Origin: Fischerella sp. CENA71 | Lineage (GTDB): Bacteria; Cyanobacteriota; Cyanobacteriia; Cyanobacteriales; Nostocaceae | Assembly (NCBI GenBank): GCA_024239075.1 | Contig: JANBVI010000040.1 | Location: 1 to 43,601 of the forward strand | DNA: 43,601 nt | Direction of reading: 5' to 3' | Notes under the pieces: model-generated | What the model was told of the DNA's origin: nothing | What the model saw: the letters and a program-made list of their open reading frames with translations, nothing else | Databases searched by the model: none | Shown: positions 2,466 to 43,601 of the stretch, piece after piece | Position numbering within the stretch: the first letter of the stretch is position 1 | Layout of the letters: every line of letters starts with the position of its first letter | Position numbers and translations under genes: made by a program

Positions 2466-4670
2466 GTGTCAGGAAAATTTACAGAAAGTATAGTTGAAGA
2501 AGCTACCCTTGAATGGTTTGAGCAACTGCGTTACAGCACCCTCAATGGCACAAAAATTTCCCCCGATTCCTCAAACCCTGAACGCCAAGACTACGCTGAT
2601 GTTGTCCTGATTAACCGCCTGCGTTCTGCCCTTGAAACCATTAATCCCCAAATTCCCGCCGACGCAATAGAAGAAGCGATTCGCAAACTTACACGCACCG
2701 ACACACCGAACTTATTTGAAAATAACCGCCGCTTCCATAAATTGCTCACAGATGGCGTAAACGTTGAATACCAAACCTCAGAAAGAATTGTCTACGAGCA
2801 AATTCAATTAATTGACTTCACCAACCCAGAGAATAACGACTGGTTAGTAGTTAATCAATTCACCGTTATTGAAAATAAAAAAGACCGCCGTCCTGATGTT
2901 GTCGTCTTCATCAACGGCTTACCTTTAGGGGTAATTGAACTGAAAAACCCAGGAGATGAAAACGCCACCATTAAAGGTGCATTTAACCAACTCCAAACTT
3001 ACAAACAAGATATCCCTAGCTTATTTCCCTATAACGAAATTTTAGTAGTTTCAGATGGTACAGAAGCCAGAGTCGGAACTCTTACCGCTGACTGGGAACG
3101 GTTCATGCCTTGGCGGATAATTGAAGGTGATGAAATCGCACCCAGAAAAACCGCAGAACTGGAAGTTTTAATTAAAGGTATCTTTGCCAAAAATCGCTTC
3201 CTTGATTTAGTCAAACACTTCATTGTTTTTGAAGTAGACGGTAGCGATATTACCAAAAAAATGGCAGGTTACCACCAATTTCATGCAGTCAATAAAGCCA
3301 TTGAACGCACAGTGACAGCCACATCCCCAGCAGGTGATAAACGTGTGGGTGTGGTGTGGCACACCCAAGGTAGTGGTAAGAGTTTAACAATGGCATTCTA
3401 CGCCGGAAAAATCATTCAGCATCCAGCAATGGCTAACCCAACTTTGGTTGTTCTCACAGACCGGAACGATTTAGACGACCAACTTTTTAACACCTTTGCA
3501 GACTGTTCAGATTTACTGCGCCAGAACCCAACTCAAGCTGAAAACCGGGAACATTTAACAGAACTTTTGCAAGTTCCATCTGGTGGCGTTGTCTTTACCA
3601 CCATTCAAAAATTCGCACCAGAACCAAAACAGCAATACCCCAAATTATCCGACCGTCGCAACATTGTTGTGATTGCAGATGAAGCTCACCGCAGCCAATA
3701 TGGATTAGAAGCGCGAGTAGTTACCAGTCGAGATGAAAGTGACAGTTATCTTGCTTATGGGTTTGCTAAACACTTGCGGGATGCCTTACCAAATGCCTCA
3801 TTTATTGGCTTTACTGGCACACCCATAGAATCAACTGATATTAATACACCAGCAGTATTTGGTGATTATATTGATATTTACGATATTCAAAGAGCCGTTG
3901 AAGATGAAGCCACCGTCCGCATTTACTATGAAGGACGCATGGCGAAACTGGAATTAGCAGAATCAGAACGTCCCCGAATTGACCCAGAATTTGAAGAAGT
4001 CACAGAATCAGAAGAACAGTCAACCAAAGAAAAATTAAAAACCAAATGGGCAAATTTAAAAGCTTTAGTAGGTGCAGAAAAACGCATTAATTTAGTTGCC
4101 GAAGATATCGTAGAACACTTTGAACGTCGCCAAGAAATTATTGACGGTAAAGCCATGATTGTCTGCATGAGCCGTCAAATTTGTGTGGATTTGTACGATG
4201 CAATTATCAGATTACGCCCTGATTGGCATGACCCAGACGATAACAAAGGCGTTATCAAAATCATCATGACCGGTTCAGCTGCGGATGGCCCAGCATGGCA
4301 ACAACATATCCGCACTAAATCCAGACGCAAAGAACTAGCCAAGCGGTTTAAAAATGAACATGACCCCATGAAGCTGGCAATTGTGCGGGATATGTGGCTC
4401 ACAGGATTTGATGCCCCATGTCTGCACACTATATATATTGATAAACCAATGCGGGGTCATGGGTTAATGCAAGCGATCGCCAGAGTTAACCGCGTCTTCA
4501 AAGACAAGCCAGGGGGTTTGGTTGTTGATTACCTGGGCATAGCCGAACAACTCAGGGAAGCTTTGAGAGATTACACAGCTGACAATCAAGCGCAAACTGG
4601 CGTTCCCCAAGAACAAGCCGTTGCCCTGATGTTGACAAAATACGAAACCGTAACCGCACTGTTGGGCTAA
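2466..4670 (+). pseudogene. hsdR: Type I restriction endonuclease subunit R, N-terminal part, interrupted by an insertion
   Basis: HsdR supplies ATP-driven DNA translocation and cleavage in type I systems. Visible in order: a PD-(D/E)xK nuclease core (RPDVVVF about residue 141, then VIELKN about residue 157), Walker A HTQGSGKS (about 298), DEAH box (about 405), and helicase motif FTGTPI (about 449). The frame starts at a GTG (2466). It runs to a TAA created by an inserted inverted-repeat element, so the last two codons (from 4664) are element sequence. The missing C-terminus continues in the same frame from 4932. Joined, the two parts would give about 1,035 aa, the normal length for this family. 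The truncated product keeps the nuclease and motor domains but lacks the helical C-terminal domain. Confidence 0.9.
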
Positions 4671-4931: not shown

Positions 4932-5846
4932 CTGTTAGAGGGTTTTGATTATCAGTTGTTTTTCACTGGTACAGCCAGCCAGCGCGTCTCCCTTATCCCG
5001 GCAGCAATGGATTATATTCTGGGGTTGGAAGATGGACAACAACGGTTTATCCAGGCTGTAAACGAATTAGCCAAAGCCTTTGCATTGTGTAGTTCCAGTG
5101 ATGAGGCGATCGCAATTCGGGATGAGGTGGGTTTATTCCAAGCCATCCGCGCTGCGTTCCTTAAACACACTACAGCTGGTGGTAACAGCCCAGAAGATTT
5201 AGATACTGCGATTCGCCAGATTGTCTCTAACGCCGTCGCCAGTGATGAGGTAGTGGATATTTTCGCCGCCGCCGGGATGCAAAATCCTGATATCTCCATC
5301 CTCTCTGATGAATTTTTAGCAGATGTGCGCCTACTTCCCCAGCGTCACTTGGCTTTAGAACTGCTACAAAAATTAATTAATGACGAACTTAAAAGTCGTT
5401 CGCGCCGCAACTTAGTACAGTCCCGTTCCTTTGCCCAGATGCTAGAGCAGACAATTCAACGTTACAAAAACCGCGCCATTGAAACTGCCCAGGTGATGAG
5501 CGAATTGATTGAACTGGCCAAAGAAATTCGGGAAGCCTACAAGCGCGGTGAGAACTTGGGACTAACTGATGATGAGTTAGCGTTTTATGATGCCTTGGAT
5601 TTAAATGATACTTCGGTGCAGGCATTAGGGGATAAAATACTTCAGGCGATCGCCCGTGACTTAGTGCAAACTATCCGCAGCAACGTCACCATTGACTGGA
5701 CTGTGAAAGAAAGTGTCAAAGCGAACCTGCGAAGGTTAGTCAAGCGTCTGCTGCGGAAATATGGTTATCCACCAGACAAGCAGGAGAAGGCGACGGTGAC
5801 GGTGCTGCAACAGGCAGAGTTATTGTGTAGAGATTGGGCTGCGTGA
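4932..5846 (+). pseudogene. hsdR: Type I restriction endonuclease subunit R, C-terminal part
   Basis: This is the continuation of hsdR downstream of the inserted element, in the same frame as the N-terminal part (the insertion plus duplication adds 273 bp, a multiple of three). It encodes the linker [11 protein letters not shown]...[14 protein letters not shown] and the helical C-terminal region of HsdR that contacts the methyltransferase core. A TTG at 4956 could start a separate 296-aa peptide, but no ribosome-binding site supports this. No other frameshift is seen in this half, so the disruption is probably recent. Confidence 0.87.
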
Positions 5847-8209: not shown

Positions 8210-9262
8210 TTAATCCAACCCGTCCATTAATAGCTCAGACATCTCCAGTTGATCACGGTTGCGATTGTCATCGTAAATCTGAAGTGTGTTCAATTTAGCG
8301 TGTCTACTAAGTTTCTGGGCTTTCCGCACATTGCCATCAGTCTTTTCCAGTACAGCTGTAATAGCACTGTGGCGGCAACGGTGCGGACTCATGTGCTTTT
8401 CAACACCAGCACGTTTAAACAATCGCTTGACTATTTTATAAATGCCATCCCCGGTTAACCTGTGACCTTCTGCATAAAAATCCACCGACGTAAACAACGG
8501 GCGGGACGAGGACATATCACCACCACGAGATATCAGCCAGTCAGTAATAGCTGTCACAGTGACTTTTGGCAGGTTGATTGTCACTCGTACTTGCTTGCCC
8601 TTACCCAAAATTGATAGCGTCCCCTTAGATCCGTCAAAATGTCTCAAGTCCAAGGTGCTAATCTCATTTCTCCTCAAAGCATTGCCCCACAACAGCAGCA
8701 ACAAAGCATAGTCCCGCTTCCCTGCCAACGTCGAGCGATCGCACCCCTTAATAACAGTTAAAAATTCTTCTTCAGTGACACCGCTAGTATCGCGGTAAGC
8801 CTGCACTGGGATACTGTCCACATCCACAGCATAGCTGCAAACTCCCAGCTTTCGCCCATAGGCAACCAAAGACTTGATTGCAGCCAGTCGCCTATTAATA
8901 GTGTTAGGCGACAAACCAGCTTCATTCAACTTAGCTCTATATTTAGTCACTACCAGCGTTGCTTTGTGACCTTCCAGGTGTAAAAACTCCAAGATAGAAT
9001 CGCGGTTAGGACGCTGACCCGTCATGCGAGTAAAAAAATCCGTGATGTCTTTGCGGTAAGCCTTACGAGTCCCCTCACTGTTTTTAGACTTAAGCAGTTC
9101 CTCCAACACATCGGGGTCAGAGTCAATTACCGAGGCAAAGTATGCCTCAATTTTGGCACTGAGGGCATTTTCTAATTTTTGGACTACAACTAACTCAACG
9201 GATTCTGTGTCTTTGCTCATTGACTCCACCCAAACAGCGGTATCGGGAATGGTTCTTTCCAA
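8210..9262 (-). CDS. Tyrosine-type site-specific recombinase/integrase
   Basis: This 350-aa product catalyses DNA strand exchange through a 3'-phosphotyrosine. The N-terminal SAM-like core-binding domain (about residues 45-145: GTRKAYRKDITDFF) is followed by the catalytic domain. All active-site residues are visible: Arg in NALRRNEIS (about 197), Lys in LGKGKQ (about 219), HRCRH (about 294-298), His in SRHAKLNT (about 321) and Tyr in LQIYDD (about 329). About 45 extra residues precede the core-binding domain. It is transcribed away from the miniature transposon at 9493. Candidate roles are plasmid dimer resolution or integration; no att site is obvious, although a 12-bp palindrome GTTGATATCAAC (9383-9394) lies in its upstream region. 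Confidence 0.9.
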   Translation of the reverse strand: MERTIPDTAVWVESMSKDTESVELVVVQKLENALSAKIEAYFASVIDSDPDVLEELLKSKNSEGTRKAYRKDITDFFTRMTGQRPNRDSILEFLHLEGHKATLVVTKYRAKLNEAGLSPNTINRRLAAIKSLVAYGRKLGVCSYAVDVDSIPVQAYRDTSGVTEEEFLTVIKGCDRSTLAGKRDYALLLLLWGNALRRNEISTLDLRHFDGSKGTLSILGKGKQVRVTINLPKVTVTAITDWLISRGGDMSSSRPLFTSVDFYAEGHRLTGDGIYKIVKRLFKRAGVEKHMSPHRCRHSAITAVLEKTDGNVRKAQKLSRHAKLNTLQIYDDNRNRDQLEMSELLMDGLD

Positions 9263-9492
9263 TACTGATGTATATTATGCAGCTGTTGGGGGTCACAGTG
9301 TTGGAATTTTATTCCTCTTGCATCTGATCAAATTGTCTATACTTGCTTCTATACCCCTGGTAGATAAATCGTTGCTATCAGTGTTGATATCAACTGTAGG
9401 CTACAGCTTCCGCTGAACTTGCAGCCTTCATTCAATCAACGAAAAAATAGGGGTTTGAAGCTTCTCCAGTCTGGTGTGTTTCCTTCTGTTTT

Positions 9493-9779
9493 TGTCGGTG
9501 GAAAGATAAGATTGCCGCGACTGGAACCATAATATTGCCACAACGGAGGCTGTAATACTCATTATTTTTGTCACTTAAGGGATAAAGTGGCCGCTTTAAA
9601 ATCCTGGAATGCTTATTTTTGCGTTGTCCTATTTTCACCATACTTTACAGCGATCGCACTCAATTGTTTCAAATCCGCTTCTATCATAGGTTCTGTTCTG
9701 CGGCCACTTTATGCTTTAAAAACGGCCACATTATCCTTTAAGTGACAGTAAAAACGGCAATATTATCCTTCCACCGACA
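9493..9779. mobile_element. 287-bp non-autonomous transposon with multi-site ends (Tn7/Tn5053-like architecture)
   Basis: The ends are inverted copies of TGTCGGTGGAA.GATAA.AT followed by TGCCG (9493-9517 and 9755-9779), so the element begins TGT and ends ACA. Inside each end is a second related site, TGTCACTTAA.GGATAA (9569-9594, and 9722-9747 inverted), plus a third partial site (about 9527-9540 and 9700-9719). Both outer flanks are GTTTT (9488-9492 and 9780-9784), a 5-bp target duplication. TGT/ACA ends, several transposase-binding repeats per end and 5-bp duplications are the hallmarks of Tn7-, Tn5053- and Mu-like transposons. The roughly 100-bp centre has no gene. Structure is certain; family assignment is inference. 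Confidence 0.85.
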
Positions 9780-9946
9780 GTTTTAGGCAAAGTTAACTAT
9801 ATCGTCTCTAATGGCAGCTTCACTAGTTCCGCGCCAATTTTATATAAGCTTATAAACTTTGTAATGTAAATAGTATTTAGTATAATAAAAGAGATTTATA
9901 CTCTTAGCATTTGTGTGAAAAATAAAATTATTTTGGAGAAGAAAAG

Positions 9947-10741
9947 ATGATTACATCTTTATCGACTGAAGATAATCTTCAGCTCACAAATTCAATTCAG
10001 CAATCTAGTTTAATTTTAAGTAATAAAATTAAAAATTTAGTTGAGAATTTAAATAAAATATTAAATTATAATAATACCAACATTATCATACATGAAATAA
10101 AGGAGTGTACAGATTTTATCAGGGAGTTTAACTTAAAATATGAAGATCCAGAAAAGCCATTAGAGAAAATAAAATTAATACGTGATTTCCGCAATAATCT
10201 TAAAAATTTCATCATAAAGCGTCAAGAGTATACAACAGATGAAGTCGTAGGAGAACTTATCAATGAAAGTCTTGCCAATCTTACAGCTTTAGAAAAAAGT
10301 TTAAAAGAAGCAGAACATTTACAAATTACAATAGCATACTTAGAAGCTATTAAGAACTCAGTTGATGACAAACTAAGTTGGCTGCAAAACTTATATTCTT
10401 CAATGCTTTATATCTTGGAGATATTAGAGGATGAAGATATTATTTTAATACCAAAAAGTGTACTCAAAACCATTGAGAATACTTCTGAATATCTGTCTTC
10501 TAATAAAGGTTTGAGGGATTACATAAAAACGTCAAAGAGTGATGAAAATCAAGAGAAAATAAGAACTTATATTAATAGTATTAGACATGTGGCAAAAGCA
10601 ACTTTATGGGAATTACAAAAACTAAAACAAGAGCAGCCTAATTTACAATCATTATTAAATTTTATTCAATCTTCCCCTGAATGGAAAGGAGATGATTTTG
10701 AAGAATGTTTAGATTTTATCAATGAAGAAAGAAGAAAGTGA
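9947..10741 (+). CDS. Helical protein paired with a PIN-domain toxin
   Basis: The 264-aa product is AT-rich, charged and largely helical (long stretches such as LEKSLKEAEHLQITIAYLEA), with no membrane segment. It starts at an ATG 10 bp after GGAG (9932-9935) and overlaps the downstream PIN gene by 20 bp, so the two are translated together. VapB antitoxins normally have about 70-90 residues and a DNA-binding domain at one end; this partner is three times longer and shows no helix-turn-helix or ribbon-helix-helix signature. It may be an unusual antitoxin or a sensor. I do not recognise the family. Confidence 0.65.
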   Translation: MITSLSTEDNLQLTNSIQQSSLILSNKIKNLVENLNKILNYNNTNIIIHEIKECTDFIREFNLKYEDPEKPLEKIKLIRDFRNNLKNFIIKRQEYTTDEVVGELINESLANLTALEKSLKEAEHLQITIAYLEAIKNSVDDKLSWLQNLYSSMLYILEILEDEDIILIPKSVLKTIENTSEYLSSNKGLRDYIKTSKSDENQEKIRTYINSIRHVAKATLWELQKLKQEQPNLQSLLNFIQSSPEWKGDDFEECLDFINEERRK

Positions 10742-32712: not shown

Positions 32713-33945
32713 TCATCGACTAAGCCCTTGACTACGATTTTTCAAAGACCTTTGTTTCTCCTGTTGCAGTGAGTCCAATCTGGACTGAATTTTGGGAATG
32801 AGTTGCTGAAAGTGTTGTACTTCTTCAGTCGTCATTTGGGAGCGCTCGACGGATTCCCAGTGTGATTTCTGCGAGTTATAGGATGCTCTCATGAGTTGTA
32901 CCCCATCGTTGTTTCTCATCAGAACCAATTGATTTTCATCCCAGTAAGCTGTGTGTTGATTTCCCTCAAATCGATTTGAGTCCACAGCTTTTAAAAGACT
33001 AGCAAGGATGGGGGCTACAGTTTGGGTGTGTTCAAATTGAATTTGTTCTTCTTCAGAATCTACGTTAGTGTGGTTGTTTGAGAGTGATTGTTGGTGACTC
33101 TGAATCTGCTTAACTGGGTTTGCAAGCAGCTGCAATATAAGCGCATCATCACGTTGTGGTTGATAGTCAACACTTTTATGTTTTTGCAGCCCTGGAAAGG
33201 TGTAAGCAGCACCCAAATGTGTGCCACTAAAATGTTGTCCGTCTATTGCATAAGAAATGCCCTTTGATTTACCGTTGCGTGTTAACCCGTGTCGAACTTC
33301 TACACCATGTTGTTGCAGTCGTTCAATGAATTGGGGCATAGTTGGTTTGTCAATTGTGGCGTTGTCAATGAGTTCTTGCAGTCGTTGTTTGATGGTGCGC
33401 TGTGGTGGGTTTTCTCGTTCGCCACGTTCATACTCTGATTGTTCTCTTTTGATGCGCCGAACTTGTCCAGTTGTGGGTGTTCTTGCTAGTTTCTCTCTGC
33501 TACCAGCTACTTGCACTAGTTCATACTCTTTTTCAAGTTCTCGTAAGACTTTTTCAGAGCGTACATAATCCCAACTATCATGTACGACTTTTCCGGTATC
33601 TAGTCTGATTCTGCTGGCGACTATATGAATGTGGTCATCATCAGTATTAGCATGTCTAAAAATGGTATATTGATTACAATCAAAGCCCATCCTTTCCATG
33701 TACTTTTCTGCTATATCACACCACTGATAATCATCGAGTTGGTCATCCTTAGCAGCTGAGAGTGAGACGTGATAAACTGCCCGTTCGACTTCTGGATTAA
33801 GTTGGCGTGAGACTTTAAATTCTCTGGACAATTCGAGAGCGTTTCTACCGCTCATATTACCGCCAATTAATCTTGACTCTTGGCTGGATTGTAAATAGTC
33901 TAGTAGACCTCTAAAACCTCTACCCTTAATCTGTTTCCCAATCAT
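32713..33945 (-). CDS. Relaxase/mobilization nuclease (MobA/VirD2 family)
   Basis: 410 aa. Relaxases nick oriT and stay covalently bound by a tyrosine. The N-terminus has Y17 in GRGFRGLLDYLQ, and the metal-binding triad is H98, H105 and H107 in FRHANTDDDHIHIVA. Residues about 165-265 form the usual basic linker region. The last about 100 residues (QTVAPILASLLKAVDSNRFE to EVQHFQQLIPKIQSRL) are a separate module that recurs as most of the protein at 37381. It overlaps mobC by 20 bp. It is shorter than conjugative relaxases, in keeping with a mobilizable plasmid without its own transfer channel in this window. Confidence 0.88.
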   Translation of the reverse strand: MIGKQIKGRGFRGLLDYLQSSQESRLIGGNMSGRNALELSREFKVSRQLNPEVERAVYHVSLSAAKDDQLDDYQWCDIAEKYMERMGFDCNQYTIFRHANTDDDHIHIVASRIRLDTGKVVHDSWDYVRSEKVLRELEKEYELVQVAGSREKLARTPTTGQVRRIKREQSEYERGERENPPQRTIKQRLQELIDNATIDKPTMPQFIERLQQHGVEVRHGLTRNGKSKGISYAIDGQHFSGTHLGAAYTFPGLQKHKSVDYQPQRDDALILQLLANPVKQIQSHQQSLSNNHTNVDSEEEQIQFEHTQTVAPILASLLKAVDSNRFEGNQHTAYWDENQLVLMRNNDGVQLMRASYNSQKSHWESVERSQMTTEEVQHFQQLIPKIQSRLDSLQQEKQRSLKNRSQGLSR

Positions 33946-34785: not shown

Positions 34786-35328
34786 ATGCACCAAGAACAA
34801 GATACTGAAAGAATAAGCAAAGACAAGATTCCAGAGGCGATAAAAGCTTTGAAGGAATTGAAGTCTAAAGAGTTGCCTGATGTTCCTGCTAAAGAAGCAA
34901 TTCGTCAGATGCGACGCTATATTGAGGGTGCTTTAAAAAAGAATTATACCTACGATGAAATATCAGAGCTATTGGCTGGGCTAGATATTCACATTAGTGG
35001 CAGTCGGCTGAAATATTTATTGGGCGAGGTGAGAAAGAGTACTCGCACTCGCAAGAAAAAGAAGGTTGAGCAGTCTTTAGAGACTGATGTTGAGCAACCA
35101 GAAGAGACTACTGTTAATCAGGGAGAGTCAACTACTGTTGACCAGGGCGCTACTGAATCTCAGGAGCTAGCTGACAATAGTGCTGAGAAAAAAGGAAGAA
35201 GAAAGTCTCAGTCAGGACAATCAGCCAAATCACAGCCAAAAGCACAGAGTCAATCAAAGTCGGAATCGAAGTTACAGGGTGAATCGCATACCTTCAAGCC
35301 AAAACTCTATAACCCAGATGATTTATGA
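34786..35328 (+). CDS. TraK/MobB-like DNA-transfer accessory protein
   Basis: 180 aa. Residues 1-80 form a helical domain (AIRQMRRYIEGALKKNYTYD, then SGSRLKYLLGEVRKS) resembling the helix-turn-helix-like domains of TraK/kaleidoscope-type oriT-binding proteins. The rest is a low-complexity, Ser/Gln/Lys-rich tail (SQSGQSAKSQPKAQSQSK). It is encoded next to the putative oriT, divergent from mobC, and overlaps the ParA-like gene by 4 bp (ATGA). This is the traK position of IncP-like plasmids, which is the main basis for the call. Confidence 0.6.
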   Translation: MHQEQDTERISKDKIPEAIKALKELKSKELPDVPAKEAIRQMRRYIEGALKKNYTYDEISELLAGLDIHISGSRLKYLLGEVRKSTRTRKKKKVEQSLETDVEQPEETTVNQGESTTVDQGATESQELADNSAEKKGRRKSQSGQSAKSQPKAQSQSKSESKLQGESHTFKPKLYNPDDL

Positions 35329-36086
35329 TCAAAACTCGAACTGCTGTTGAGAAGAAAACCGCTCCATCAGCAGTAAACAAAAGGATTGTGATGTGTACGG
35401 GGGACAAAGGGGGGACAGGGAAAAGCATAGTAGCGAGGATTTTGCTCGATATTTACCGAAATCGCAATATCAATTGCATTGCTTATGAGTGTGACGCTTC
35501 TAATCCTCAGTTGTGGAGGCATTACAACAATATTCCGCCTGGAGTAAAAACTCTGAAATTGAATCATCGAGGTGGTGCGGATGCCTTGCAAGATGACTTA
35601 AAATTGTTGACTCCTCAAGTTTCATTGGTTGATTTGCCTGCGGGTGCAGCAGAGTATTTTGAGGATTTGGCAAACGACATCTATTTATTTCAAAATGCCG
35701 AGCGTTTGGGCTACCGAATCACGATGGTGAGTGTGTTGGGCAGAGTCAAGGATTCGGTAGTGCAATTAAAGAGGCTGTTAGAGTTTTGTGGCAGTCGAGT
35801 GGACTATGTGATAGTTAGGAATCTCTACTGGGGTGCAGAAAATAAGTTTACTCGCTACAACAACTCAAAGGCGCGGCAGGCTGCATTGGATTTGGGCGCA
35901 ATTGAGTTGAACTTGCCGGAGTTGTTTGACGATATTTTTGATTTTATAGATAGTAACGATTTAAGTTTTCGAGAAGCCTTATCACATGAGGCGCTAACTT
36001 TGAGCAATCAGTCAAGGTTGTTTGGGTGGGTGGATAGTTGCGAGAGTGAGTTTAATAGGGCTGCATCGCAGTTGGGACTGGAGTAA
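35325..36086 (+). CDS. ParA/MinD-superfamily ATPase (TraL-like)
   Basis: 253 aa. The deviant Walker A KGGTGKSIVARIL (about residues 29-41) is followed by Walker A'-type Asp in YECDASNPQLW and Walker B-like SLVDLPAG (about 104). ParA-type ATPases position DNA or protein cargo. No ParB gene follows; instead the gene is sandwiched between TraK-like and membrane-anchored TraM-like genes next to oriT, as traL is in IncP plasmids. A role in mobilization is therefore more likely than partition, for which the plasmid already has ParM. Confidence 0.82.
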   Translation: MIKTRTAVEKKTAPSAVNKRIVMCTGDKGGTGKSIVARILLDIYRNRNINCIAYECDASNPQLWRHYNNIPPGVKTLKLNHRGGADALQDDLKLLTPQVSLVDLPAGAAEYFEDLANDIYLFQNAERLGYRITMVSVLGRVKDSVVQLKRLLEFCGSRVDYVIVRNLYWGAENKFTRYNNSKARQAALDLGAIELNLPELFDDIFDFIDSNDLSFREALSHEALTLSNQSRLFGWVDSCESEFNRAASQLGLE

Positions 36087-39569: not shown

Positions 39570-40478
39570 GTGAAACAGACAGTAACATTAGCCACTGTCG
39601 TAGTTAAATTTTTAGAACGTCCTGGGCTGGCATTAAGTACCAAGGAGACATATTCTCTAACCTTGGGATTATTATTGCAAGAATATGGAAGCTGGCCAAT
39701 TGAAATTATAAGTCGTCAAACATTAGTCGAGTATTTAAATACTCTCACACATTTAAAATACACAACTCATAACAAGCATCAAGCGATACTGCAAAGCTTA
39801 TTTAACTTTGCCGTAGAACAAGGATACATAAAATCCAACCCCATTCGGGGAATCAAACAGCGTCCACCTTCACGAGAAAAAGGTGAACATCGCACAGATG
39901 AAATTATACGATTCTTAACTCCATCACAGTTAGAAATCCTGTATGAAGCCGTAGCCGATGACCGCCGCCTTAACGCGATTGTGCATTTATTACATCACAC
40001 AGGATGTAGAATTGGTGAGCTTTTGGCACTAAATCTAGAATCGGTAGACCTCTTAAATTGGAAATTTCAAGTATTGGGAAAAGGAAATAAACAAAGATGG
40101 TGTTTCTACAACGAAGCGACAGCGATAGCACTAAATAAATATATAAATTACGACCGACATAAACAATCACCTGCCTTATTTACAGCACAGCATCCAGTGA
40201 CGATGAAGATAAGTAGAATAAGCTACCGAACACTGCATGACTACTGGCGAGAAATTACCAATAAACACTTACTTCTTCAGGGAGTACGCATTCATGATTT
40301 ACGACATACATTTGCCACAGAGCGCGTAGGCATAATTAGTATTGAACAACTGCGTGCATTGATGGGTCATGAAAGTATCCAAACAACCTTACGCTATCAA
40401 AAAGTTACATCACAAAAAGCAGAAGAAGCTGCACGTCTTGCTTTTAATATGTTGACTAAAGTTGATAAATTAGACTGA
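39570..40478 (+). CDS. Tyrosine recombinase, probable TnpI-like resolvase of the Tn3-family transposon
   Basis: 302 aa from a GTG. Catalytic residues are all present: Arg in GCRIGELLAL (about 147), Lys in LGKGNKQRW (about 170), HDLRH (about 241-245), His in LMGHES (about 266) and Tyr in LRYQKV (about 275). The N-terminal core-binding domain is normal. It lies 175 bp upstream of, and on the same strand as, the Tn3 transposase, the tnpI-tnpA order of Tn4430-type transposons, where TnpI resolves cointegrates. It could instead be an independent phage-type integrase. Confidence 0.85.
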   Translation: MKQTVTLATVVVKFLERPGLALSTKETYSLTLGLLLQEYGSWPIEIISRQTLVEYLNTLTHLKYTTHNKHQAILQSLFNFAVEQGYIKSNPIRGIKQRPPSREKGEHRTDEIIRFLTPSQLEILYEAVADDRRLNAIVHLLHHTGCRIGELLALNLESVDLLNWKFQVLGKGNKQRWCFYNEATAIALNKYINYDRHKQSPALFTAQHPVTMKISRISYRTLHDYWREITNKHLLLQGVRIHDLRHTFATERVGIISIEQLRALMGHESIQTTLRYQKVTSQKAEEAARLAFNMLTKVDKLD

Positions 40479-40653: not shown

Positions 40654-43601
40654 ATGACCTTAATTGACCGTACCGCCTATCCGAAATTTAAACAATACCC
40701 CGACCCCAAAGAACTAGCAGAACTTTATACCCCAACCTCCGCAGAAATTAAATTTGCTAAGTCTCGCACCAAGAGCCATGAAGGGTTTCTCTGTTTCATG
40801 GTGATGTTGAAATCTTTTCAACGACTTGGATATTTCCCTCATCCTGAGTGTGTACCCAATGCAGTGATTAAACATTTACGGTCGTGTTTAAAGCTACAAA
40901 GTTGGGTAAAAGCCATCCCGTCACAACGTCAAGGTTATACTTACCAACGGGCTATCCGTTCTTACCTGGGGGTTAAACAATATGATAAAACCGCCCAAAA
41001 GTTGATTGCTATTCTAGTTGCCCAGCAAGCAGAAGTAAAAGACCACCCGGCTGATTTAATCAATGTCGCAATAGAGGAGTTGGTCAAGGAAAGATATGAA
41101 TTACCTGCGTTTGGCACTCTTGACCGATTAATTGGTCATATCCGTACTTTTGTGAATAATCGACTGTTTGGGCGGGTGAACAATGGTCTTTCAAGCACCG
41201 AAATGGTTTACTTAGACCAACTGTTACTTGGAGACATTGATGAATCAATTGCTACACTAAATCTTTTAAAATCGCCTCCTAAAAGTGCAACATTCAAGGG
41301 GATGAAACAACTTCTCACTAAGTTTGATGCGCTCATGAGTTTTGGTGATGCCAAACGTTTGTTAGTCAGCATTGCCCTGACTAAAATTAGATATTTCGCC
41401 GCCCAAGCCAGAGCTTTAGATATTTCGGAGTTGCGAGATGTTAATCTTTCCAAACGCCGCACTTTAGTTTTATGTCTGCTGTACGAGGCACAGGTCAGAA
41501 CTCGTGACCATTTAGTGGAAATGTTCCTCAAGCGTGTTCTTAAGATTCAAAACAATGCCAAACAGCGATTACAGGAACTGCGTGAAAAACATTTGGCGCA
41601 GACATCAGAGTTATTGGGTACACTGGCAGAGGTTTTAACTGCATCCAAGGAAGCACAAGACGCTCAAAGTTTGGGAACTAAAGTACAGTCAATCTTTGAT
41701 GAACATGGTGGGCCAGATTTACTGCTACAAAAATATGAAGAGATTGCGGCGTACAACACGAATAATCATTTACCTTTGATGTGGCGGTTCTATTCGCCTC
41801 ACCGCAAAGTTTTATTTGATTTAGTACGGTCTTTAGACATTCTCTCAACCTCTGCTGATGAATCAGTAATTGATGCACTTTCATTTATTCTGGACAACGA
41901 ACATAAGCGCGGTAGACATTTGCCATTTGAAATTGACTTGAGTTTTGTTGGTAAACAATGGCGGGCGTTGGTGATACAAGAGGTGAATGGCACTCAAGTG
42001 TTAGTACGTCAGCAGCTAGAAATTTGTATTTTTTCTTACTTGGCAGATGATTTTAAAGCGGGGGATGCCTGTGTTGTTGGTTCTCTTTCTTACGCTGATT
42101 TCCGTGAGCAACTTCTGTCAGAGTCTGAATGTCAACCCCTGATATCAGAATATTGTCGTTTAATTGGGTTTCCAGACAATCCAGAAGATTTTGTAGAATA
42201 CTTACGCGACTCATTAACCTCTGTTGCAGAAGAAGTTGATGCCATTTGTGCGGTCGAAAAACAAGTCACAATTAATCAGGCTGGTGAACCTGTTCTCAAA
42301 AAAATTACACCGGTAGCTCAACCACAAGAGGTGGAAGCTTTAGAAGCTAAAATCCGTACCTTGATGCCTGAGCGTAGTATTTTAGACATTCTCTGCAATG
42401 TTGAGCATTGGTTGAACTGGACAAAACATTTTGGCCCACTTTCGGGAAGTGAACCCAAATTAAAGCAGCCTGTGGAGCGTTATATTTTTACCACTTTCAG
42501 CTATGGTTGCAACCTGGGGCCAAACCAAATGGCACGACATTCACAGGGTGCAGTCACATCTCACATGATTTCTTATACCAACCGTCGCCATGTCAGTACG
42601 TCCAATATTGAAGCGGCGATTCGAGATATTATCAATGCTTACAACCGTTTTAGCCTGCCGTCAGTTTGGGGTACTGGGAAGCGTGCCGCCGCTGATGGCA
42701 GTAAGTTTGAGATATACGAAAACAATCTCCACAGTGAGTATCACATCCGTTATGGCGGATATGGTGGTATTGCTTATCACCATGTTTCTGATAAGTACAT
42801 TGCTTTGTTTACTCATTTTATTACTTGTGGTGTGTGGGAAGCGGTGTATATTTTGGATGGGTTATTGAAAAATCTCTCCGATATTCAACCAGATACGTTG
42901 CACGCAGATACCCAAGGGCAATCTGGGCCTGTATTTGCCATTTCTTACCTGTTGGGTATCAAGTTGATGCCGCGCATTCGCAACTGGAAGGATCATGCTT
43001 TTGTGCGCCCAAGTGAAGATGTCAGCTACAAGTATCTCGACCCTTTGTTTAAGGGTGTGGTCAATTGGAATCTGATTAAAACTCATTGGTATGACATGAT
43101 GCGGGTGGTGCTGTCGATTAAGGCAGGGAAGGTGATGCCTTCTACTTTGTTGCGGAAGCTGGGTAGTTACAGTCGCAAGAACCGACTTTATCAGGCATTT
43201 CTAGAGTTGGGAAAAGTTGTACGAACGATGTTTCTGCTGGAGTATATTTCTAACGTGAGGATGCGCTCTGAAATTAATGCCATCACGAATATTGTGGAGA
43301 TGTACCACGCGTTCTTGGATTGGGTCTTTTTTGGCAAGGAAGGGGCGATTACAGAAAATGACCCTATTGAGCAGGAAAAGCGGTTGAAATACCTCGATTT
43401 GGTTGCTTCTGCTGTGATTTTGCAAAATACGGTTGATATGTCTTTGGCGATTCAAACTTTAGCTGCACAGGGAGAGGTGATTCACCAGCGTCATGTTGCT
43501 GCGTTAAGTCCCTACGTGAATAGGCATATCAAGCGATACGGTGATTATGTAGTGAATTTACGTAATATTCCTCAACCTTTGGAAGTGGCGATTTCTTTAC
43601 C
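40654..43601 (+). CDS. tnpA: Tn3-family transposase, C-terminus beyond the window
   Basis: The frame is open from ATG 40654 to the window end (982 residues; family length about 980-1000, so only a short piece is missing). The N-terminal region (KFAKSRTKSHEGFLCFMVML...QRLGYFP) is the DUF4158-type DNA-binding domain. The DDE catalytic residues fall at D681 (ADGSKFE), D752 (HADTQGQ) and E882 (NIVEMYHA), with the spacing seen in Tn4430-type transposases. Tn3 elements move by replicative transposition and form cointegrates, resolved here probably by the tyrosine recombinase upstream. I did not find the left 38-bp terminal repeat within the window. Confidence 0.93.
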   Translation, partial: MTLIDRTAYPKFKQYPDPKELAELYTPTSAEIKFAKSRTKSHEGFLCFMVMLKSFQRLGYFPHPECVPNAVIKHLRSCLKLQSWVKAIPSQRQGYTYQRAIRSYLGVKQYDKTAQKLIAILVAQQAEVKDHPADLINVAIEELVKERYELPAFGTLDRLIGHIRTFVNNRLFGRVNNGLSSTEMVYLDQLLLGDIDESIATLNLLKSPPKSATFKGMKQLLTKFDALMSFGDAKRLLVSIALTKIRYFAAQARALDISELRDVNLSKRRTLVLCLLYEAQVRTRDHLVEMFLKRVLKIQNNAKQRLQELREKHLAQTSELLGTLAEVLTASKEAQDAQSLGTKVQSIFDEHGGPDLLLQKYEEIAAYNTNNHLPLMWRFYSPHRKVLFDLVRSLDILSTSADESVIDALSFILDNEHKRGRHLPFEIDLSFVGKQWRALVIQEVNGTQVLVRQQLEICIFSYLADDFKAGDACVVGSLSYADFREQLLSESECQPLISEYCRLIGFPDNPEDFVEYLRDSLTSVAEEVDAICAVEKQVTINQAGEPVLKKITPVAQPQEVEALEAKIRTLMPERSILDILCNVEHWLNWTKHFGPLSGSEPKLKQPVERYIFTTFSYGCNLGPNQMARHSQGAVTSHMISYTNRRHVSTSNIEAAIRDIINAYNRFSLPSVWGTGKRAAADGSKFEIYENNLHSEYHIRYGGYGGIAYHHVSDKYIALFTHFITCGVWEAVYILDGLLKNLSDIQPDTLHADTQGQSGPVFAISYLLGIKLMPRIRNWKDHAFVRPSEDVSYKYLDPLFKGVVNWNLIKTHWYDMMRVVLSIKAGKVMPSTLLRKLGSYSRKNRLYQAFLELGKVVRTMFLLEYISNVRMRSEINAITNIVEMYHAFLDWVFFGKEGAITENDPIEQEKRLKYLDLVASAVILQNTVDMSLAIQTLAAQGEVIHQRHVAALSPYVNRHIKRYGDYVVNLRNIPQPLEVAISL

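What the first reader, a model, noticed from the sequence alone, without database searches (positions are those of the whole stretch)
9488..9784. 287-bp Tn7/Tn5053-like miniature transposon with six binding sites and GTTTT duplication
Each end carries three related roughly 26-bp sites (an outer TGTCGGTGGAA type, an inner TGTCACTTAA type, and one partial), the element starts TGT and ends ACA, and it has a 5-bp target duplication. This is the end structure of Tn7-like elements, including CRISPR-associated transposons, and of Tn5053-like elements, but with no cargo. It implies a matching transposase in the same cell and gives a minimal donor for it.
Basis: partly seen in the sequence, partly recalled or inferred. 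Interest (0 to 1): 0.7.

Follow-up and report, generated by a model that had tools for sequence, protein, structure and literature searches.

The report
Nested mini-transposons that hunt transposon ends
The 287-bp element is one tiny Tn7-like transposon sitting inside another, and copies and full-length relatives of both tend to lie at a fixed distance inside the ends of other transposons, which suggests jumping DNA that specialises on other jumping DNA.

Summary
In detail: TGT..ACA ends, six TnsB-like sites, GTTTT on both sides. A relative carries the uninterrupted site with one GTTTT, so the insertion is real. But it is not one six-site element: it is a 179-bp element "B" (9569-9747) inside the remains of element "A" (9493-9568 and 9748-9779). 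Each recurs separately in the genome family.

Full-length parents (A 5.9 kb, B 5.5-5.7 kb) encode a TnsA-TnsB fusion, TnsC and a TnsD-like TniQ, with no room for Cas genes or cargo. No parent was found in this assembly, only a broken TnsB tail.

A's right end faces a Tn3-family tip 53-58 bp away (30 of 46 right-end flanks, 8 of 38 left-end, 38 of 6000 random). B lies about 53 bp inside ends like those of other Tn7-like elements (33 of 40; random 16 of 3000). In the window B lies 53 bp from A's second TnsB site, not from its tip.

Best reading: two lineages of TniQ-guided "transposon-end hunters". The association is strong; recognition by TniQ is inferred. Earlier description cannot be excluded: a key survey is not held.

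The parts
9488..9492 (.). target duplication GTTTT, left copy
   Evidence: single GTTTT in the uninterrupted site of a relative
9493..9568 (+). left end of element A (tnsAB-proximal type), with TnsB-like sites at 9493-9517 and 9516-9541
   Evidence: matches A copies (query 321-394); orientation; site similarity
9569..9747 (+). element B, 179 bp, a 202-bp miniature element that lost 22 bp and one site; sites at 9569-9593, 9702-9719(-), 9723-9747(-)
   Evidence: same element alone on C58 of the own genome
9748..9779 (-). right end of element A, 32 bp, site 9755-9779
   Evidence: query 1-32; orientation
9780..9784 (.). target duplication GTTTT, right copy
9798..9835 (-). diverged Tn3-family-like end, tip at 9835, 56 bp from A's right end: the presumed target site of A (the 38-bp length is recalled)
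   Evidence: 19 of 28 to the consensus, best in the window together with one other place (4664 +); the empty-site relative looks closer to it (sequence)

Best explanation
The window holds a B miniature transposon nested in what is left of an A miniature transposon, on a plasmid-like contig. Both belong with small cargo-less Tn7-like transposons made of a TnsA-TnsB fusion, TnsC and one long TnsD-like TniQ. A's machinery inserts a fixed distance (mostly 54-56 bp) inside the ends of Tn3-family transposons, right end towards the tip. B's machinery inserts about 53 bp inside the TnsB-site arrays at the ends of other Tn7-like transposons. Shown: nesting, empty site and duplication, parents elsewhere, fixed-distance association with transposon ends. 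Inferred: that TniQ reads the target, that TnsC and TnsAB then insert inwards as in Tn7, and that the miniature copies are moved in trans by such parents.
For: Separate recurrence of A and B. Empty site. Parents with the same ends. Both TniQ match solved TnsD 8v32_J. A: Tn3-like tip in 30 of 46 right-end flanks, 8 of 38 left-end flanks, 38 of 6000 random places; tips coincide with Tn3 transposase genes. B: 33 of 40 elements against 16 of 3000 random flanks, 22 flanks at exactly 53, 25 junction clusters. Cross-check: B shows a Tn3-like tip in 0 of 40 and A's right- and left-end flanks a Tn7-like tip in 0 of 46 and 0 of 38.
Against: In the window B lies 76 and 32 bp from A's two tips and has no duplication of its own; the 53-bp rule holds only from A's second site. 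7 of 40 B elements fit no host tip at the cut-off (L037, L051, L052, L054, L092, L178, L209), among them one B parent, L092. Only 9 of the 33 fitting B copies keep a duplication, 11 of 20 A copies do, and 0 of 4 hosts with both tips do. A's left-end flanks carry the Tn3-like tip in 8 of 38. The window's own Tn3 transposase gene has no motif within 3 mismatches beside it. One regex hit for a Tn7-like tip was seen in 12 copies of elements I call untargeted. No binding or transposition was tested.
Confidence: 0.8

Rival explanations
1. One coherent 287-bp miniature transposon with three sites per end, moved by a single Tn7- or Tn5053-like transposase.
For: One outer duplication GTTTT encloses all six sites.
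Against: The inner 179 bp and the outer ends recur apart in many genomes, and the inner part alone has its own 5-bp duplications elsewhere.
Confidence: 0.04
2. B does not read DNA but senses the host's TnsB protein bound to its ends, as Tn5053 elements sense res sites occupied by resolvase (title of the paper cited in PMC11406308).
For: Host sites differ widely yet all look like TnsB sites (consensus TGTGACTTtAACCATAAgTTG); the window's B is placed by an inner site rather than a tip.
Against: Most miniature hosts have no tnsB nearby: of 20 host regions fetched, relatives of the query TnsB proteins were found in 2; distance and orientation resemble TnsD-type targeting.
Confidence: 0.2
3. The clustering is only nesting by chance plus copying of nested units: B copies were carried along inside host elements, so the shared junctions are few events.
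For: Some junctions are shared, e.g. L044/L090, L045/L046/L062, L048/L056/L142.
Against: 25 junction clusters for 33 elements; distance is fixed at 53 across very different host ends; random rate 0.5%.
Confidence: 0.05
4. A targets recombination (res-like) sites of tyrosine recombinases, and the Tn3-like motif is part of such a site.
For: A tyrosine recombinase gene (8210-9262) lies beside the window's A; some flanks carry the motif on both sides (L105, L075).
Against: The motif sits at inverted tips around Tn3 transposase genes (C18, C61; L095); of 51 sequences searched only the window and L082 hold a relative of this recombinase.
Confidence: 0.08

Closest known systems
Tn5469 (cargo-less cyanobacterial Tn7-like transposon)
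   Same: no cargo and a single TniQ (PMC11406308, passages); a two-copy element of 4,904 bp, the length I recall for Tn5469, came up in the TnsAB search
   Different: Tn5469 is listed there as apparently untargeted; the Tn5469-type host in L253 has a 272-aa TniQ, A and B have 522-528 aa
Type I-B2 CRISPR-associated transposon of a Peltigera cyanobiont (TnsAB, TnsC, TnsD)
   Same: A's TnsAB matches 9bw1_M with 1132 bits; both TniQ match TnsD 8v32_J (that these entries belong to that system is recalled, the abstract of PMC12585508 was seen)
   Different: no CRISPR-Cas genes; target is a transposon end, not a tRNA gene
Tn5053 family (res-site hunters)
   Same: a single TniQ aims at parts of Tn3-family transposons (PMC11406308, passages)
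   Different: A and B have TnsA fused to TnsB and no resolvase gene; the target is the terminal region, and for B the ends of Tn7-like elements
IS4321/IS5075 (IS110 family)
   Same: precedent for an element whose target is another transposon's terminal repeat (recalled; only search listings seen)
   Different: unrelated recombinase, no TnsABC or TniQ

Membership tests
Tn7-like miniature (non-autonomous) elements | TGT/ACA ends with several TnsB-like sites | tested here: met
   (by sequence only)
Tn7-like miniature (non-autonomous) elements | 5-bp target duplication and an empty site | tested here: met
   GTTTT twice in the window, once in L363
Tn7-like miniature (non-autonomous) elements | same ends on an autonomous element with TnsB, TnsC and TniQ | tested here: met
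   A: L082, L102, L103, L105, L111; B: L092, L093, L186; genes were listed for L102, L103, L092, L093 and L186
Tn7-like miniature (non-autonomous) elements | moved in trans by the parent's transposase | not testable with these tools
   needs a transposition assay
CRISPR-associated transposons | Cas genes and a guide array in the element | tested here: not met
   in the parents listed, ORFs of at least 100 aa (150 aa in L186) are TnsAB, TnsC and TniQ, plus short ORFs overlapping them or an end
Tn5053 family | no TnsA; own resolvase and res site | tested here: not met
   TnsA domain by Pfam in L103 and L186 (none reported for L092); no resolvase ORF in the parents listed
Tn5053 family | insertion in res sites of Tn3-family elements | tested here: inconclusive
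   A's motif coincides with Tn3-family tips; res sites were not mapped
Tn5469 group | no cargo, TnsAB-TnsC and one TniQ | tested here: met
   TnsA domain not reported for every member
Tn5469 group | untargeted insertion | tested here: not met
   A and B have target association; 12 copies of other members do not (1 Tn7-like tip, 0 Tn3-like)
TnsD-targeted Tn7-like elements | TnsD-like TniQ, fixed distance, right end towards the recognised site | tested here: met
   for B parents, host tip on the right-end side at 53-54 bp in 3 of 4 with a visible right end
TnsD-targeted Tn7-like elements | TniQ binds the target DNA | not testable with these tools
   only weak helix-turn-helix signals below cut-off

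The most novel reading that the evidence does not exclude
B is a lineage of Tn7-like transposons whose dedicated target is the TnsB-site array at the ends of other Tn7-like transposons, and A is a sister lineage dedicated to Tn3-family ends: TniQ has been turned into a reader of transposon ends, giving transposons that specialise on transposons and may disarm them or ride along with them.
Probability: 0.72. Interest if true: 0.82.

Novelty: new variant of a known kind. Interest (0 to 1): 0.75.

Why it matters
[quoted passage not shown] Here are two candidate lifestyles with a direct test. If true, it explains why short miniature elements sit inside transposon ends in these cyanobacteria, offers natural TniQ proteins that seek defined short motifs, and raises the question whether insertion about 53 bp inside an end disables the host or lets B travel with it; in L253 B lies between an end and the host's tnsAB gene.

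Tried and rejected
One-element reading: rejected by separate recurrence of both parts. Matching transposase in the cell: PF09299 and TnsAB searches of the assembly gave three tnsB-tnsC-tniQ sets of another type, an interrupted tnsB on C66 and a broken TnsB tail on C58, but no parent. tRNA targeting: ARAGORN found no tRNA in 26 sequences scanned; tRNA 3' ends beside four B copies (L045, L046, L047, L174) were recognised by eye only, those loci were not scanned, and I read them as the neighbourhood of the host element. Recombinase-site targeting of A: set aside in favour of Tn3 tips. Literature: Tn7-like + cyanobacteria + MITE gave 2 papers, both on other subjects by title; miniature/Tn7-like/TnsB binding sites/Nostoc, 3 of 4 terms, gave 2, on other subjects; five terms joining Tn7-like, transposon ends and Tn3 family gave 0; Tn5469 gave 1. 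The survey NAR gkac1216 and the Tn5469 paper are not held.

Rows dropped and choices: of 49 B candidate pairs nine were removed before counting (four A elements caught by the loose end pattern: L081, L103, L105, L111; one implausible pairing in L096; three alternative pairings in L189 and one in L227), leaving 40. B was defined by its end pattern with up to 7 mismatches, so L189 and L227 may be near relatives. The window is one of the 33 of 40, through A's second site. Four of the 46 A right-end flanks were added by hand in spite of a low end score (window, L074, L077, L094); without them the count is 29 of 42. The regexes and the consensus were written after seeing the flanks, so the counts are descriptive and the controls are the guard. 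Two of the 13 library tips are A's own ends. The host tips (36 of 38 at 17 or more of 26; 0.3% of 2000 shuffles) were placed by eye and its library held the L253 host itself; one search repeats the test without placing tips by hand. Of the 12 copies behind the library, 7 have a duplication and 5 do not. L290's host tip was missed by the regex and accepted by similarity (24 of 26); L281-L283 are the same parents as L093, L186 and L092.

Full report
What is in the window. The stretch 9488-9784 reads GTTTT, TGTCGG...CCGACA (9493-9779), GTTTT. There is an outer inverted repeat (25 nt, 92%) and an inner one (40 nt, 83%). The contig is G000:C40, 43,601 bp of a 7.47-Mb, 95-contig assembly.

Two elements, not one. 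Searching the own genome and 218 genomes of the family with the whole stretch gave one end-to-end match, itself, in a list that is best-first and capped. The others are mostly query about 92-264 alone (B; some run on to at most 294, where the neighbouring end resembles A's) or query 10-84 with about 265-298 (A). With cleaner queries B was found in 80 of 218 genomes and A in 101 of 218. The common B is 202 bp with two sites per end; the window's copy lacks 22 bp and with it one site. The A copy used as query is 394 bp; the window keeps about 76 bp of the left and 32 bp of the right end, and B stands in place of the middle. So the six sites are two plus one from A and one plus two from B.

Mobility. 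In one relative (G108:C4, locus L363) the window's flanks are continuous with one GTTTT (88% over 155 nt; alignment); of the 29 of 210 genomes with any match, it is the only listed match that spans the junction. Of 20 A elements with both ends read, the window included, 11 have a perfect 5-bp duplication.

Parents. Five A parents of 5,894-5,895 bp (L082, L102, L103, L105, L111) and three B parents of 5,530-5,670 bp (L092, L093, L186) have the same ends. In those translated (L102, L103; L092, L093, L186) the genes are a TnsA-TnsB fusion (863-915 aa), TnsC (375-389 aa; split in two ORFs in L103) and TniQ (522-528 aa), with otherwise only short ORFs overlapping them or an end. Pfam reports TnsA, integrase-core, Mu-C, TniB and TniQ domains, not each in each protein: no TnsA domain was reported for L092, and its integrase core and L186's are below the curated cut-off. 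A and B TnsAB are 44-46% identical. A's TnsAB matches the solved chain 9bw1_M with 1132 bits, and both TniQ match TnsD 8v32_J; that these entries are the Peltigera cyanobiont system of PMC12585508 (abstract) is recalled. The own genome has no match to A's TnsAB at E 1e-100 (86 of 210 genomes do), only a broken tail on C58 right beside a B copy.

What A aims at. Flanks beyond A's right end share a motif like GGGGTAAAAGTAGCGAAG.TG.CA whose tip lies mostly 54-56 bp away. A loose pattern finds it in 30 of 46 right-end flanks (29 of 42 without four added by hand), 8 of 38 left-end flanks and 38 of 6000 random places. The motif belongs to Tn3-family ends: an ORF between an inverted pair of it on C61 is a Tn3 transposase (PF01526), and of the 18 motif places in the own genome six, on C18, C61, C54 and C37, lie within about 4 kb of a PF01526 match; PF01526 matches lie on seven contigs, and those on C40 (the window), C46 and C74 have no such place nearby. 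In L095 tips at 10383 and 15536 enclose a relative of the window's Tn3 transposase (26% identity), and an A-type end lies 57 bp inside the right tip; L077 has the same arrangement at its tip 3338, probably the same event, and only one A-type end was seen in each. In the window the best match to the consensus over both strands, 19 of 28 and shared with one other place (4664 +), has its tip at 9835, 56 bp from A. At the empty site of the relative the same stretch looks closer to the consensus (sequence, judged by eye). So the window's A probably entered an old Tn3-family end.

What B aims at. Of 40 B elements, 33 have, 49-57 bp from the insertion point, a 26-mer that matches at 17 or more positions one of 13 tips of independently delimited Tn7-like elements; 22 flanks do so at exactly 53. 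Random flanks: 16 of 3000. A's flanks: 0 of 42 right-end at any distance tested, and 0 of 38 left-end in that range (2 elsewhere). A stricter pattern gave 23 of 40 against 86 of 5764. The 33 fall into 25 host-junction clusters, and 9 of 33 keep a 5-bp duplication. The tips come from A and from elements found through their TnsAB gene and delimited by comparing copies, one of them 4,904 bp, the length I recall for Tn5469. In L253 (with L056) a B copy with duplication GTAAG lies between the left tip and the tnsAB gene of an element with ORFs of 909, 375 and 272 aa that match TnsAB and TniQ in order; its other tip matches over 22 of 22 nt. Without B and one duplication it would be 4,903 bp. L254 has B, with duplication, inside a 498-bp host with both tips; L062 and L094 also have both tips. 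None of these 4 hosts has a duplication of its own. Of 4 B parents with a visible right end, 3 show a host tip at 53-54 bp on that side (L281 and L282 by pattern, L290 by 24 of 26 similarity; not L283). L047 has a tRNA 3' end and a TGTACAGTGAC tip on its other side, which I recall as like a type V-K end; not tested.

The window under that rule. B lies 76 bp from A's left tip and 32 bp from A's right tip, and has no duplication of its own. But exactly 53 bp from B begins A's second site (9516), which matches the right tip of the 4,904-bp element at 19 of 26 positions. The likely story, inferred, is that B was placed by A's second site and the DNA between B and A's right end was lost. Two other B-in-A cases lie 53 and 55 bp from A's tip (L094, L188).

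Controls. Twelve copies of other TnsAB elements show a Tn7-like tip at 49-57 bp in 1 and a Tn3-like tip in 0. B shows a Tn3-like tip in 0 of 40, A a Tn7-like tip in 0 of 46 and 0 of 38. The L253 host's TniQ is 272 aa, A's and B's 522-528; beyond the TniQ domain the latter have helix-turn-helix signals, all below curated cut-offs.

Mechanism. Most likely each parent's TniQ binds the outer part of a transposon end, loads TnsC, and TnsAB inserts the element inwards at a fixed distance, right end nearest, as TnsD guides Tn7. Distance, orientation and TniQ homology support this; binding and transposition are not shown. That B senses host TnsB on those sites remains open.

Novelty. Tn5053 elements hunt res sites of Tn3-family transposons, and Tn5469 is listed as apparently untargeted (PMC11406308, passages). 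A survey of Tn7 target selectors has no 'Tn3' in its main text (PMC10293859, outline and passages); a cargo survey notes nesting in general (PMC8649781, passages). The searches listed no report that by title or abstract start describes Tn7-like elements aiming at transposon ends; NAR gkac1216 is not held, so it may have been noted there.

Noticed in passing
window 32713-33945, 35325-36086, 39570-40478, 40654-43599: Plasmid-like gene set: relaxase-like and ParA-like ORFs (by eye), a tyrosine recombinase and a 982-aa Tn3-family transposase frame running off the contig end.
   Followed up: partly
window 2466-4670 and 4956-5846: Two neighbouring ORFs look like one type I restriction subunit gene split in two (by eye).
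   Followed up: no
L034 5730-6117 and L041 9396-9671 (own genome C88, C18): A third miniature family with ends TGTGACTTAAAGGAAAAGATTGCCG, one copy just upstream of a tnsB-tnsC-tniQ set.
   Followed up: no
L037 4598-4799 and 4823-5233 (own genome C58): A B copy directly abuts the broken tail of a TnsAB gene that is 47-53% identical to A's and B's.
   Followed up: partly
L105, L075, L092: A or B sits at the centre of an inverted pair of the same flanking motif without a duplication; for L092 (and one side of L043) the motif is GCGATCGCTTGATTAATGCCTTAACGAAG, not a recognised tip.
   Followed up: no
L045, L046, L047, L174: B copies lie within about 80 bp of what look like tRNA 3' ends, in L047 with a second, different tip facing B (by eye).
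   Followed up: no
window 9360-9410: This short stretch upstream of the tyrosine recombinase gene recurs (query 1 to about 35-63) in many genomes of the family.
   Followed up: no
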